From Halorubrum aquaticum (GTDB lineage: Archaea; Halobacteriota; Halobacteria; Halobacteriales; Haloferacaceae), in assembly GCF_900113615.1 (NCBI RefSeq), contig NZ_FOPZ01000005.1, positions 124,001 to 188,000 of the forward strand: DNA of 64,000 bases, read 5' to 3'. Numbering within the stretch: the first letter of the stretch is position 1; every line of letters begins with the position of its first letter. The notes beneath the pieces were generated by a model that worked only from the letters and a program-made list of their open reading frames with translations, was not told where the DNA came from and did not search any database. The position numbers were made by a program, and so were the translations under genes. Below are positions 15,719 through 22,002 of the stretch, in pieces.

Positions 15719-15952
15719 ATGCCGACACTCGATGTCCGAGAGATCCCGCCGGTGGACCGTCACACGAAGATCCACGAGAAGTTCGAGGCGATGGAGCCGG
15801 GCGAGACGCTCACGATCGTCAACGACCACGAGCCGAAGCCGCTGTTCTACGAGATGGCCGCCGAGGTGCCGTCGTTCGACGAGGACGCCTACGAGGTGTA
15901 CGAGGAGTCGCCCGGCGAGTTCGTCGCGGACTTCCCGAAGCGAGAGGAGTAG
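15719..15952 (+). CDS. DUF2249-like protein (first of three)
   Basis: A 77-residue domain of the DUF2249 / TusA-like type: LDVREIPPVDRHTKIHEKFEAMEPGETLTIVNDHEPKPLFYEM, with a G-E-T-L-T-I-V-N-D-H-E-P-K-P core, then a beta hairpin. Such small proteins are found with nitrate/nitrite and hemerythrin genes and are thought to bind redox ligands or metal, but their function is not settled. It has its own promoter with a CGAAC palindrome. Confidence 0.85.
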   Translation: MPTLDVREIPPVDRHTKIHEKFEAMEPGETLTIVNDHEPKPLFYEMAAEVPSFDEDAYEVYEESPGEFVADFPKREE

Positions 15953-16054: not shown

Positions 16055-16381
16055 TCAGGCGTCATCACGGGGGCTCCGTTCCTCGTCGACGCCGAGGAGC
16101 CGTGCGAGGGCGCGAACGCGGTCCGGATCGGTTTGAGCCGTCCGTTCCGGGCCGGGATCGAGGCCGACCGTCAGCCTCCCGACGAGGGTCGACGCGAGAG
16201 CCCGGAGCGTCTCCCGCTGTTCGTCGGCGAGCGTCCCGCGGGCTTCGAGCGCGGAGACCGCCTCCTCGAGTTCGCGCCGCTCGATCCGGGCCGCACGCCG
16301 ACGGAGTCGCCGCCGGTATCGCCGCCGGAGTCGTTCCGGATCGGATGCCGGATCGATCCCGTCGACGCGGGACTCAGGCAT
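16055..16381 (-). CDS. Free-standing glutamyl-tRNA-reductase dimerisation domain (GlutR_dimer-like)
   Basis: 108 residues matching only the C-terminal helical dimerisation domain of HemA: an Arg-rich helix, RELEEAVSALEARGTLADEQRETLRALASTLVGRLTVGLDPG, then ALARLLGVDEE near the end (HemA proteins end similarly with ..LFGLE). It lacks the catalytic Cys and NADPH domains, so it cannot reduce glutamyl-tRNA. It may bind HemA or a partner in the DUF2249 operon (inference). Its ATG lies 8 bases inside the end of the upstream DUF2249 gene, so the two are co-translated. Confidence 0.72.
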   Translation of the reverse strand: MPESRVDGIDPASDPERLRRRYRRRLRRRAARIERRELEEAVSALEARGTLADEQRETLRALASTLVGRLTVGLDPGPERTAQTDPDRVRALARLLGVDEERSPRDDA

Positions 16382-16634
16382 GGCTTATCTCGACGTGCCA
16401 GACCGCGGCTCCGTCGTCGCCGGTCGGTTCCTTCCGCGTCGTCTCGTATCGGAATCCGCGACGTTCGAGGACGTCGTACAGCGGCTCCGGCTCGAAACCG
16501 TTCACCAGGAGCAGCGACTCGCCCTCGGGGAGGTCCTCGAGCGCGGCCATGATGTCGCCGAACGGTTCGCCGTCGATCTCGCGGGCGTCGAGCCGCCGGT
16601 TCGCGTCGGACGGGTCGGGCAGGTCGGTGCTCAT
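16374..16634 (-). CDS. DUF2249-like protein (second of three)
   Basis: 86 residues with the same core as its neighbours: RRLDAREIDGEPFGDIMAALEDLPEGESLLLVNGFEPEPLYDVLERRGFRYE. The P-E-G-E-S-L-L-L-V-N-G-F-E-P-E-P stretch aligns with that of the 15,719 gene. It is upstream of, and overlaps, the GlutR-dimer gene. The start ATG (16,632-16,634) is 37 bases from a perfect CGAAC-GG-GTTCG palindrome shared with the divergent third copy. Confidence 0.85.
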   Translation of the reverse strand: MSTDLPDPSDANRRLDAREIDGEPFGDIMAALEDLPEGESLLLVNGFEPEPLYDVLERRGFRYETTRKEPTGDDGAAVWHVEISHA

Positions 16635-16671: not shown

Positions 16672-16683
16672 CGAACGGGTTCG
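16672..16683. promoter_or_regulatory. Perfect CGAAC-GG-GTTCG palindrome between divergent DUF2249 genes
   Basis: CGAACGGGTTCG reads with two 5-base arms that pair exactly. It is 37 bases from the minus-strand start at 16,634 and 38 bases from the plus-strand start at 16,722, almost at the midpoint of the 87-bp intergenic region. This position suits an activator or repressor serving both promoters at once. A similar element lies 40 bases ahead of the gene at 15,719. Confidence 0.6.
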
Positions 16684-16721: not shown

Positions 16722-16988
16722 ATGCCCGAGACCGCGGAGTTCCTCGACCGAGCCGGAGTCCCGGAGGACGTGGAACACGAGACGCTCGACGCCCGGGAAC
16801 TCCCGCCGCCGCGACCGCTCAAGGACACCCTCGAGCGGCTGGCGGACCTGGACGACGACGTGGCGCTGATCCAGTACAACGACCGTCGACCCCAACACCT
16901 CTACCCGCGGCTCGACGACCGGGGATACCGCCACGAGACCGTCGAGGACGACGGGACGGTCGTGACCGTCATCTGGACCGACGGCTGA
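16722..16988 (+). CDS. DUF2249-like protein (third of three)
   Basis: 88 residues, with EHETLDARELPPPRPLKDTLERLADLDDDVALIQYNDRRPQHLYPRLDDRGYRHETVED. The core has a DDDVALIQYNDRRPQHLYP stretch in place of the GETLTIVNDHEPKPL consensus and is the most divergent copy. The ATG at 16,722 lies just after the palindrome-bearing divergent promoter. The dehydrogenase on the opposite strand begins immediately after its end. Confidence 0.82.
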   Translation: MPETAEFLDRAGVPEDVEHETLDARELPPPRPLKDTLERLADLDDDVALIQYNDRRPQHLYPRLDDRGYRHETVEDDGTVVTVIWTDG

Positions 16989-18389: not shown

Positions 18390-18968
18390 ATGCCAAAGTA
18401 CTCGACGGGGGACGGAGGCGGCGACGACGACGGCGACGCCTGCGAGCTCTGCGGACGGGAGACGACGAACCTCCAGCGGGCGAACGTCGCCGGCGCGCGC
18501 CTGCTCGTCTGTTCGAACTGCCGCCCGCACGACGACTCCAGACGGGGATCGGGCGGAAGCGGGGGCGGCGGAGGCGGAAGCGGGGGCGGGAGTGCCGGCG
18601 GCTCCGGCGGCGGATCCGGCAGCGCCGGCGGTGCGGACGGGAGCGGCCCGCGCAGCCGCACACAGGAGATCGCCAACAAGCAGGCGAAGATGTACGACGC
18701 CGCGACCGGCGACTCCTCCCACTGGGAGGAGGAGGGGACGAACTACGAGGAGGACCGGCTCCCGTACCTCGTCTCCGGCTACGGCGACCTGACGACCGAG
18801 GCGCGTCAGGGGGAGGGACTCACCGTCGAGGAGCTGGCGGCCGAACTCGACGTCGACGAGGACGACCTGTTGGCGATCGAGGACGGCCGGGCGGCGACCG
18901 CGGGCGTCGGCGGCTCCGTCGTCCGCGCGGTCGCGGAGCGGCTCGACGTGGAACTCGTCGAGGAATGA
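18390..18968 (+). CDS. Multiprotein bridging factor 1 homologue (MBF1) with a Gly/Ser linker
   Basis: 192 residues. An N-terminal zinc ribbon (ACELCGRETTNLQRANVAGARLLVCSNCRPHD) is followed by a long Gly/Ser-rich linker (about 53-90), then a conserved middle (SRTQEIANKQAKMYDAATGD) and a C-terminal HTH (LTVEELAAELDVDEDDLLAIEDGRA...VGGSVVRAVAERLDVEL). Archaeal MBF1 binds the transcription/translation machinery. The ribbon and HTH are canonical; the linker is unusually long. The stop overlaps the HD gene's start (ATGA-like, 18,965-18,968), so the two are coupled. Confidence 0.9.
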   Translation: MPKYSTGDGGGDDDGDACELCGRETTNLQRANVAGARLLVCSNCRPHDDSRRGSGGSGGGGGGSGGGSAGGSGGGSGSAGGADGSGPRSRTQEIANKQAKMYDAATGDSSHWEEEGTNYEEDRLPYLVSGYGDLTTEARQGEGLTVEELAAELDVDEDDLLAIEDGRAATAGVGGSVVRAVAERLDVELVEE

Positions 18969-20224
18969 ACGCGATCAAGGACAGCGTTCACGGTCACGTC
19001 CGACTGGACCCGGCGGCGGCCGAGCTGATCGACACGCCGGCGTTCCAGCGACTGCGCCACGTCAAACAGCTGTCCACGGTCCGGCTCGTGTACCCCTCCG
19101 CGAACCACACCCGGTTCGAGCACAGCCTCGGCGTCTATCACCTCGCCCGGCAGGCGCTCGACGGCCTCGATCTGGACCCCGACACCGCCGCGCACGTCCG
19201 GGCGGCCGCGCTGCTCCACGACGCGGGCCACGGCCCGTACGGCCACCAGACCGAGGGGATCATCCGGCGGCGAACGGGCCGGGATCACGACGACGTCGAG
19301 TGGCTCCTGACCGATCCGGACCGCGAGGTCACCCGCGTCCTCGAGCGCCACGGTCTCGACCCGGAACGCGTGGCGGCGCTGATCGCGGGCGAGGGCGGCG
19401 TCGGCGCGCTCGTCTCGGGCGAGCTCGACGTCGACCGCATGGACTACCTCGTGCGCGACGCCCATCACACGGGCGTCCCCTACGGCACCGTCGACACCGG
19501 GCGACTGGTGAACGAACTCCGGCTCGTCGACGGCGAGAGCGGACGGGGCAACGGCGGGAACGAACGGGGCAACGGCGGGAACGAACGGGACGGCGGAGGG
19601 AGCGACCCCGACCCCGCGAGCGCCGACCTCGTGCTCGCCGAGGGGAACGTCGCCACCGCCGAGAGCCTGCTTTTAGCCCGCTCGTTGATGAACGCGGTCG
19701 TCTACCGCCACCACGTCTCCCGGGTCGCCGGCGCGATGCTCGAACGCGCCTCCGAGCGCTATCTCGACCGGACGGGGACGGACGTCGAGACCTTCCGGCG
19801 GATGGCCGATCACGACCTGCTCGTCGACCTCCGCGAGCACGTCCCGGAGCTCGGCCGGCGGATCGAGCGCCGCGACCTGTACAAGCGTGCGGTCTGGGTC
19901 GGGCTCGGGGAGGTGCCGGCCGGAACCGTCGACGCCGACCACGAGGCGGCGCTCGCGGCCGAACGCGAGATCGCCGACCGGGCCGGCGTGGATCCCGAGA
20001 GCGTCGTCGTCGACGTCCCGTCGCGACCGGGACTCAAGGAGTCCGGCTCCACCGTCGTCGTCGACGGGATCACCCAGCGACTGTCGGACGCCTCCGAGCT
20101 CGTCGCCGGGATCCGGGCGGCCGAGCGCAGCCGCTGGCGGCTCGGCGTGTACTGTCCGGGCGATCACGTCGAGGCCGTCCGTGAGGCCGCCCGCGACGTG
20201 TTGGGCCTCCGGCTCGCCGAGTGA
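18965..20224 (+). CDS. HD-domain phosphohydrolase, SAMHD1-like (copy 1)
   Basis: 419 residues of the HD superfamily. Metal-site residues are visible in NHTRFEHSLGVYHLA, AALLHDAGHGPYGHQ and ELDVDRMDYLVRDAHHTGVPYG, the H...HD...D order of SAMHD1/dGTPase-type enzymes. Such proteins hydrolyse dNTPs or nucleotide polyphosphates; the substrate here is not known. A low-complexity loop (about 192-212, RGNGGNERGNGGNERDGGG) is encoded by a 21-bp direct repeat. It overlaps the MBF1 gene. The paralogue at 20,761 lacks this loop. Confidence 0.88.
   Translation: MNAIKDSVHGHVRLDPAAAELIDTPAFQRLRHVKQLSTVRLVYPSANHTRFEHSLGVYHLARQALDGLDLDPDTAAHVRAAALLHDAGHGPYGHQTEGIIRRRTGRDHDDVEWLLTDPDREVTRVLERHGLDPERVAALIAGEGGVGALVSGELDVDRMDYLVRDAHHTGVPYGTVDTGRLVNELRLVDGESGRGNGGNERGNGGNERDGGGSDPDPASADLVLAEGNVATAESLLLARSLMNAVVYRHHVSRVAGAMLERASERYLDRTGTDVETFRRMADHDLLVDLREHVPELGRRIERRDLYKRAVWVGLGEVPAGTVDADHEAALAAEREIADRAGVDPESVVVDVPSRPGLKESGSTVVVDGITQRLSDASELVAGIRAAERSRWRLGVYCPGDHVEAVREAARDVLGLRLAE
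19541..19600 (+). repeat. In-frame 21-bp direct repeat in the HD gene
   Basis: The unit beginning GGACGGGGCAACGGCGG occurs at 19,541-19,561, 19,562-19,582 and, partly, 19,583-19,600. It encodes the Gly/Asn-rich insertion. Because the unit is a multiple of three it keeps the frame. It may vary in copy number between strains by slippage. Confidence 0.7.
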
Positions 20225-20760: not shown

Positions 20761-22002
20761 ATGGCCACGGTCAAGGACACCGTCCACGACCACATCGAGA
20801 TCGACGGCGTCGGCGCGGACCTCCTCGACACGCCGACCGTCCAGCGGCTGCGCCACGTCAAACAGCTCGGTACCGTCCAGCTCGTGTACCCCTCCGCGAA
20901 CCACACCCGGTTCGAGCACAGCCTCGGCGTCTACCACCTCGCTCGACAGGCGCTCGACCACCTCGGGATCGAGGGGCGACAGGCCGACCGGATCGAGGCG
21001 GCCGCGATGCTTCACGACGTGGGACACGGCCCGTTCAGCCACAACCTCGAGTCGCTCACCCACCGTCGGACCGGAAAGTACCACGACGACGTCGAGGAGC
21101 TGCTCGACGGCGGCGAGGTGGGTGAGGTCCTCCGCGAGCACGGCCTCGATCCCGGGACGGTCGCCGGGGTCGTCGCCGGCGAGGGAACGTACGCCGGTCT
21201 CGTCTCGGGCGAGCTCGACGTCGACCGCATGGACTACCTCGTGCGCGACGCCTACCACACGGGCGTCCCCTACGGCACCATCGACACCGAGCGGTTCGTC
21301 CGGGAGCTCACCTTCGTGGAGGGGGTCGAATCCGGGGGGGACTCGCCCGCGCTCGTCCTGGACGAGGGGAACGTCCAGACGGCGGAGAGCCTCCTCCTGG
21401 CGCGGGCGTTGATGAACCCGGTCGTCTACACCCACCACGTCGCGCGGATCTCGAAGGCGATGCTCCGACGGGCGGCCGCGGAGCTCCTCGACGCGACGGC
21501 GACGAGCGCGGCCGAGCTCCGCCGGATGGACGACCACGACTTCCTGGCGGCGATCCGCGACTGTCCGGCGACGACGGAGCTCTCGCGACGGTACGACGAG
21601 CGCGACCTCTACAAGCGGGCGGTGTGGGCGGAGTACGGCGACGTCCCCGACCGCGTCCACGACGCCGACCACGCGAGCGAACTGGCGCTCGAACGCGAGA
21701 TCGCCGAGGAGGCCAGCGTCGCCCGCGAGGACGTGATACTCGACGTGCCGCCGGAGCCCTCGATGCGCGAGTCGACCGCGCGGGTGACGGTCAACGGCGA
21801 GGTCCGGCGGCTCGAGCGGCAGTCGCCGCTCGTCTCCGCGCTGCGGGTCGCCCAGCGGAACCAGTGGCGGCTCGGCGTGTACGCGCCCGGCTCGGCGACC
21901 GACCGGGTCGGCCGGGCGGCCGCCGACGTGCTCGGACTCGACCCCGACGCGCTCGTGATCGAGGTGCGGAAGGCGATGCCGACGACGCTCGACGAGTTCT
22001 GA
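20761..22002 (+). CDS. HD-domain phosphohydrolase, SAMHD1-like (copy 2)
   Basis: 413 residues, a close paralogue of the protein at 18,965. The N-terminal 60 residues align almost throughout (RLRHVKQLGTVQLVYPSANH in both). The metal motifs are conserved: TRFEHSLGVYHLARQAL, AAMLHDVGHGPFSH, ELDVDRMDYLVRDAYHTGVPYG. It lacks the low-complexity insert. It starts at the ATG after a TATA box. The pair flanks a USP gene, evidence of a local duplication. Substrate unknown. Confidence 0.88.
   Translation: MATVKDTVHDHIEIDGVGADLLDTPTVQRLRHVKQLGTVQLVYPSANHTRFEHSLGVYHLARQALDHLGIEGRQADRIEAAAMLHDVGHGPFSHNLESLTHRRTGKYHDDVEELLDGGEVGEVLREHGLDPGTVAGVVAGEGTYAGLVSGELDVDRMDYLVRDAYHTGVPYGTIDTERFVRELTFVEGVESGGDSPALVLDEGNVQTAESLLLARALMNPVVYTHHVARISKAMLRRAAAELLDATATSAAELRRMDDHDFLAAIRDCPATTELSRRYDERDLYKRAVWAEYGDVPDRVHDADHASELALEREIAEEASVAREDVILDVPPEPSMRESTARVTVNGEVRRLERQSPLVSALRVAQRNQWRLGVYAPGSATDRVGRAAADVLGLDPDALVIEVRKAMPTTLDEF

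What the first reader, a model, noticed from the sequence alone, without database searches (positions are those of the whole stretch)
16055..16381. Free-standing GlutR dimerisation domain without a catalytic part
A 108-residue gene aligns by eye with the helical tail of HemA (ELEEAV...LRALASTLVGRL...LLGVDEE) but has no Cys/NADPH domain. It is co-translated with a DUF2249 protein. It could modulate HemA dimerisation or act as a scaffold.
Basis: partly seen in the sequence, partly recalled or inferred. Interest (0 to 1): 0.66.

Follow-up and report, generated by a model that had tools for sequence, protein, structure and literature searches.

The report
Free-standing HemA dimerisation domain protein
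A small protein of salt-loving archaea is a detached copy of the pairing domain of HemA, the enzyme that starts haem and vitamin B12 synthesis, and its relatives sit beside genes for nitrate breathing, haem and B12, so it may adjust HemA to demand, which is untested.

Summary
The 108-aa ORF (16055-16381, minus strand; "GL") overlaps the upstream DUF2249 gene by 8 nt. Pfam GlutR_dimer scores it 19.5 bits, below its cut-off of 22.9, but 7 of 7 tested relatives pass. GL matches HemA C-termini at 48-55 bits, reached by 0 of 3000 shuffles. A profile of 73 GLs finds the Arabidopsis GluTR dimerisation domain (4yvq, E 1.9e-7). The predicted fold ranks that same structure first.

GL is a widespread haloarchaeal family, a sister group of the HemA C-terminus. 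It occurs in two settings. In 68 of 74 loci it lies among denitrification-type genes (DUF2249, AhbD-like radical SAM, NirK, Nor), with CGAA-N4-TTCG sites near it in 68 of 68. In the other six it sits directly behind CobN, before CbiC, in cobalamin operons, once fused to CbiC. The genome's hemA locus (3.3 kb) lacks the motif.

Best reading: GL is a plug-in that binds HemA, or scaffolds late tetrapyrrole enzymes, to match precursor supply to anaerobic-haem or B12 demand. The HemA-binding step is inference. Not found in the papers searched.

The parts
16055..16381 (-). GL: free-standing GluTR-dimerisation-type protein, 108 aa
16374..16634 (-). DUF2249 protein (Db), upstream partner; its 3' end overlaps the GL start by 8 nt
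   Evidence: PF10006 60.5 bits; sequence
16722..16988 (+). DUF2249 protein (Dc), divergent from Db
   Evidence: PF10006 54.0 bits
15719..15952 (+). DUF2249 protein (Da), convergent with GL; Da, Db and Dc are the only three DUF2249 matches in the genome
   Evidence: PF10006 83.9 bits; own-genome search
16672..16683 (.). CGAA-N4-TTCG palindrome, 37 nt 5' of the Db start codon and 38 nt 5' of the Dc start codon
15667..15678 (.). CGAA-N4-TTCG palindrome, 40 nt 5' of the Da start codon

Best explanation
GL is a paralogue of the C-terminal dimerisation domain of glutamyl-tRNA reductase (HemA), detached from the enzyme and placed under the control of pathways that consume tetrapyrroles. SHOWN by computation: homology and fold; widespread in haloarchaea; in the denitrification type, CGAA-N4-TTCG promoter motifs and linkage to DUF2249 and AhbD-like radical SAM genes; in the cobalamin type, location directly after cobN and before cbiC. 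INFERRED: the motif makes GL appear when oxygen runs out; GL then pairs with HemA through the shared domain, or with itself as a docking dimer. That would change HemA activity or stability, or tether it to late-pathway proteins, so that 5-aminolevulinate supply fits the demand for anaerobic haem (or B12), without changing hemA transcription.
For: Homology: BLAST against HemA with 0 of 3000 shuffles reaching the score; GL profile finds 4yvq (GluTR dimerisation domain) E 1.9e-7 and 4n7r E 1.5e-6; Pfam GlutR_dimer above cut-off for L097, L105, L100, L117, L120, L106 and L116; predicted fold's first three matches are GluTR, 4yvq Z 8.9 over 82 of 84 residues. Context: AhbD-like TIGR04053 radical SAM directly upstream in 17 of 68 denitrification-type loci and GL directly 3' of it in 12 of 80 named loci; six cobalamin operons with the order CobN - GL - CbiC, one GL-CbiC fusion ORF. 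Regulation: 202 motif sites against 15.3 expected around 68 loci, every locus with at least one; cobalamin loci 3 against 1.07, none in promoter position. Own ahbD-like gene has the motif 47 bp upstream; own hemA locus has none. NirK and GL co-occur within the genus: 13 of 13 NirK+ against 7 of 33 (or 6 of 32) NirK- genomes, p below 1e-6. Precedent: plant FLU inhibits GluTR by binding this very domain (PMC4726326).
Against: No interaction, dimerisation or expression datum exists for any GL. Neither setting is universal: GL is absent beside ahbD in 11 of 11 Haloferax loci and in 66 of 80 named AhbD-like loci overall, so it is not required for AhbD. In the window's genome GL is not adjacent to ahbD or nirK (other contigs). 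GL lacks the upper part of HemA's long spinal helix. Foldseek gave no significant match (best E 4.6).
Confidence: 0.45

Rival explanations
1. GL no longer touches HemA. It is a homodimeric helical adaptor of the DUF2249 / radical-SAM / CGCGG-peptide modules, holding those proteins together.
For: Same-strand upstream partners in 68 loci are radical SAM 17, DUF2249 12, CGCGG peptide 5, peroxiredoxin-like 4. Halomarina plasmid order: DUF2249, CGCGG RiPP, TIGR04053 radical SAM, GL.
Against: Does not explain the separate cobalamin-operon setting without DUF2249, nor why HemA-like residues are kept.
Confidence: 0.3
2. GL is a decoy that titrates a protease or inhibitor recognising HemA's dimerisation domain, so HemA is stabilised when GL is made.
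For: Plant FLU binds exactly this domain (PMC4726326), so such regulators exist in nature; the isolated domain crystallises with FLU.
Against: No FLU-like regulator of haloarchaeal HemA was looked for here, and I recall none.
Confidence: 0.12
3. GL is a decaying duplicate with little function.
For: Relaxed constraint (median dN/dS 0.475), variable N-terminus, an in-frame TAG in the G148 copy, patchy distribution.
Against: All 153 pairs have dN/dS below 1; present in seven haloarchaeal families with conserved promoter motif and operon position.
Confidence: 0.08
4. The match is a chance or composition effect of an arginine-rich helix; the ORF is not a GluTR relative.
For: Pfam below cut-off; atypical codon usage; pI 10.2 in a window with median 4.45.
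Against: 0 of 3000 shuffles; relatives above Pfam cut-off; plant GluTR hit.
Confidence: 0.02

Closest known systems
C-terminal dimerisation domain of glutamyl-tRNA reductase (PF00745; Arabidopsis GluTR 4yvq/4n7r, M. kandleri 1gpj)
   Same: Sequence and predicted helical fold.
   Different: No catalytic or NADPH domain; separate gene in denitrification-type or cobalamin operons; upper part of the spinal helix missing.
Plant GluTR regulators FLU and GBP
   Same: Separate proteins that tune GluTR; FLU acts on the dimerisation domain (PMC4726326).
   Different: [quoted passage not shown] GL's effect is untested.
Haloarchaeal denitrification regulon with DUF2249 proteins (DrpA-like) and AhbD
   Same: Motif, DUF2249, NirK/Nor, AhbD; DUF2249 genes induced under denitrification in Hfx. 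mediterranei (PMC11218638).
   Different: The passages I read of that study do not mention a GluTR-like protein.

Membership tests
PF00745 GlutR_dimer | Profile score above the curated cut-off (22.9 bits), this protein | tested here: not met
   19.5 bits, E 0.0013
PF00745 GlutR_dimer | Profile score above the curated cut-off, relatives in the same GL family | tested here: met
   7 of 7 relatives tested: 38.7, 45.3, 47.6, 43.0, 31.5, 33.6 and 43.5 bits; a further one, the L104 fusion ORF, 43.3
PF00745 GlutR_dimer | Helical fold of the GluTR dimerisation domain | tested here: met
   AF2 model (pLDDT 79.9, pTM 0.60); VIA-align ranks 1-3 are GluTR, Z 8.9, 8.0, 7.3; but Foldseek not significant and only 38 chains compared
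PF00745 GlutR_dimer | Dimerises | not testable with these tools
   single-chain prediction only
Glutamyl-tRNA reductase (HemA, TIGR01035) | N-terminal catalytic Cys domain and NADPH domain | tested here: not met
   108 aa, absent; the genome has a separate 451-aa HemA with TCNR
CGAA-N4-TTCG (NarO-type) regulon | Palindrome in the promoter | tested here: met
   37-40 nt before the start codons of Db, Dc and Da; 68 of 68 related loci have a site within 3 kb
CGAA-N4-TTCG (NarO-type) regulon | Induction without oxygen | not testable with these tools
   no expression data for this gene

The most novel reading that the evidence does not exclude
Haloarchaea regulate the entry of tetrapyrrole synthesis with detachable copies of HemA's own dimerisation domain: one lineage is wired to denitrification and anaerobic haem, another built into B12 operons. 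Each binds HemA to direct or adjust precursor flow, a plug-in subunit mechanism that I know of for no GluTR.
Probability: 0.33. Interest if true: 0.78.

Novelty: new variant of a known kind. Interest (0 to 1): 0.62.

Why it matters
Control of the first committed step of haem and B12 synthesis in archaea is largely open to my knowledge. A detached copy of the enzyme's own pairing domain, found in both a haem-demand and a B12-demand setting, gives a directly testable candidate. It also gives a role to look for in unnamed genes of denitrification and cobalamin clusters. PMC8305020 (passages) lists unresolved points in exactly these two haloarchaeal pathways.

Tried and rejected
Chance or composition: rejected by shuffles and reversal. 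Non-coding ORF: codon score is poor, but homologues and dN/dS below 1 argue against it. Haem binding through conserved Cys/His: unlikely, 56 of 74 GLs lack Cys and 24 lack both. NCBIfam and PHROGs gave nothing for the window protein (PHROGs best E 0.44). Plasmid records: none for the window GL or the L097 GL; two Halomarina records for a Halococcus-type GL. Foldseek against PDB: nothing significant; the VIA second look covers only 38 chains. Distribution outside the class: with PF00745 at E<=0.001, one of the genomes listed as 'same phylum' (G426) has two matches; this model is not sensitive to divergent GLs. Counting genomes with two or more profile matches (128 of 391, handles copied by hand into) overstates GL, because some hold two full HemAs; a stricter set of 90 (38 doubtful genomes dropped) keeps the NirK association (69 of 90 against 113 of 263, p 2.5e-8). 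Phylogeny was corrected for only by the within-genus test. The L104 GL-CbiC fusion could be an indel, since in L105 of the same genus the genes are separate and overlapping. Literature: searches found no paper on free-standing archaeal copies; subscription journals and bioRxiv are not held. Papers: PMC11218638 section 6 and passages; PMC5746218, PMC8305020, PMC10062603, PMC11237513, PMC4521371 passages; PMC4726326 abstract, introduction and results; PMC6282519 abstract; Hattori 2016 only as cited in others.

Full report
What is there. The ORF at 16055-16381 on the minus strand (108 aa, "GL") begins inside the last codons of the DUF2249 gene 16374-16634, an 8-nt overlap typical of coupled translation. 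Two further genes, 16722-16988 (+) and 15719-15952 (+), are also DUF2249 proteins (PF10006). These three are the only DUF2249 matches in the whole genome.

Is it really a HemA piece? Yes, by several routes. (i) BLAST: 47.8 bits to the genome's own HemA, up to 54.7 to other HemAs; 3000 shuffles reach at most 38.1. (ii) Searching 170 genomes of the family with GL alone finds HemA C-termini in most, E about 1e-7. (iii) A profile from 73 GLs finds Arabidopsis GluTR in the PDB: 4yvq E 1.9e-7, 4n7r E 1.5e-6; the archaeal 1gpj only E 0.22. (iv) Pfam GlutR_dimer: this protein 19.5 bits, below 22.9, but 7 of 7 tested free-standing relatives pass. (v) The AlphaFold model (pLDDT 79.9, pTM 0.60; helices 15-47, 53-72, 78-81, 86-95) has GluTR structures as its first three VIA-align matches (4yvq Z 8.9, rmsd 2.1, 82 of 84 residues), although Foldseek itself is not significant and helical models can reach such Z values by chance. 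In the tree (83 rows, 98 columns) HemA C-termini form one clade (95/98), and the window genus GLs another (98/96). The genome also has a complete 451-aa HemA.

The family. I extracted GL from 74 loci: the window, 26 loci. One further locus (L093) proved to be full HemA and was dropped, and two loci identical in GL to L052 were left out. The 48 loci are my selection. The loci cover seven haloarchaeal families. Some genomes contribute two loci, so the loci are not all independent. DUF2249 lies within 5.5 kb in 61 of the 74.

Setting 1, denitrification type (68 of 74). Frequent neighbours: Bat-type HTH regulator (27 loci), AhbD-like radical SAM (22), cupins, Nor-like 748-aa protein (15), NirK (14), halocyanin (14) (NirK, radical SAM, HTH_10, cupin and DUF2249 confirmed by profile; the Nor-like and halocyanin labels are recalled from sequence). 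The same-strand gene directly upstream of GL is a radical SAM in 17, DUF2249 in 12, the CGCGG peptide in 5, a peroxiredoxin-like gene in 4, something else in 2, none in 28 (the window and L049 are among the 28 by script, but have DUF2249 upstream by eye). The radical SAM is TIGR04053 (496 bits), a sister of haem b synthase AhbD (TIGR04545, 341 bits, cut-off 500). In Hfx. volcanii the gene named ahbD (HVO_2144), shown there to serve anaerobic haem synthesis, lies with nirK and norB, and shares the CGAA-X4-TTCG palindrome with them (PMC5746218, PMC8305020, passages). I did not test orthology of that gene to the GL neighbour. Among 80 named AhbD-like loci, 14 have GL within 9 kb and 12 directly 3'; 66 do not, including 11 of 11 Haloferax loci (the matches in L178, a full HemA, and L205, E 2.4e-4, were not counted).

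The motif. In the window, 2 of the 4 CGAA-N4-TTCG sites in 64 kb (2.55 expected) fall 37-40 nt before the start codons of Db/Dc and Da; the chance of two of four falling in those 228 bp is 7.6e-5. Around the 68 loci (3 kb each side) there are 202 sites against 15.3 expected; 68 of 68 loci have one, and 161 sites lie in promoter position; 28 of 68 GLs have one within 160 bp upstream of the domain. The genome's AhbD-like gene has one 47 bp upstream, its hemA locus none; 7 of 8 hemA loci lack it and the eighth has it on the downstream side of hemA. The palindrome is needed for nirK reporter activity (Hattori 2016, as told in PMC5746218) and affects nor and nosZ promoters in Hfx. mediterranei (PMC10062603 passages).

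Setting 2, cobalamin type (6 of 74: L097, L100, L104, L105, L117, L120; three families). GL sits directly after cobN and before cbiC, usually overlapping both, followed by cbiE-type methyltransferase and cbiX. In L104 GL and CbiC form one 325-aa ORF. These loci have 3 motif sites against 1.07 expected and none in promoter position.

Co-occurrence. Of 391 class genomes, 128 have two or more GL/HemA-type matches and 210 have NirK. After dropping 38 doubtful genomes, NirK is in 69 of 90 GL genomes and 113 of 263 others (p 2.5e-8). Within the window's genus 13 of 13 NirK+ genomes have GL, against 7 of 33 NirK- (6 of 32 if one doubtful genome is dropped). The window's own genome has NirK and the AhbD-like gene on other contigs.

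How it may work. Shown: a detached HemA domain, in anaerobic-respiration-type promoters and in B12 operons. Inferred: hemA itself is outside the motif regulon, so GL may be the way the regulon reaches HemA. It would pair with HemA or dock it near late enzymes, and so tune 5-aminolevulinate supply. Plant FLU shows that the dimerisation domain is a site of control, and that the isolated domain folds and crystallises (PMC4726326). The main rival is that GL is only a scaffold for DUF2249 and radical SAM proteins; the B12 setting speaks against that.

Novelty. The domain is known; a free-standing, co-regulated family of it is not described in the papers that my searches reached. The Halomarina copy is annotated 'hypothetical protein'.

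Noticed in passing
L104:6041-7018 (+): One ORF encodes GlutR_dimer fused to precorrin-8X methylmutase CbiC; either a true fusion or an indel.
   Followed up: partly
L091:6158-7222 (+): A protein with four tandem DUF2249 domains directly after a GL gene.
   Followed up: no
L139:5332-10359 (Halomarina plasmid NZ_CP100455.1): GL follows a CGCGG RiPP and TIGR04053 radical SAM; a TIGR04347 pseudo-SAM with Htur_1727 RiPP lies nearby. A similar radical SAM / second SAM-like pair is on G000 contig C10.
   Followed up: partly
window 16055-16381: GL has pI 10.2 in a window whose called genes have median pI 4.45; the arginine-rich first helix is typical of the window's genus and may bind RNA or an acidic partner.
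   Followed up: partly
L036:5660-5962 (-): GL copy of genome G148 carries an in-frame TAG, a likely pseudogene.
   Followed up: no
window 18965-20224 and 20761-22002: Two similar long genes lie near each other on the + strand; they look like HD-domain phosphohydrolases (label recalled, not searched).
   Followed up: no
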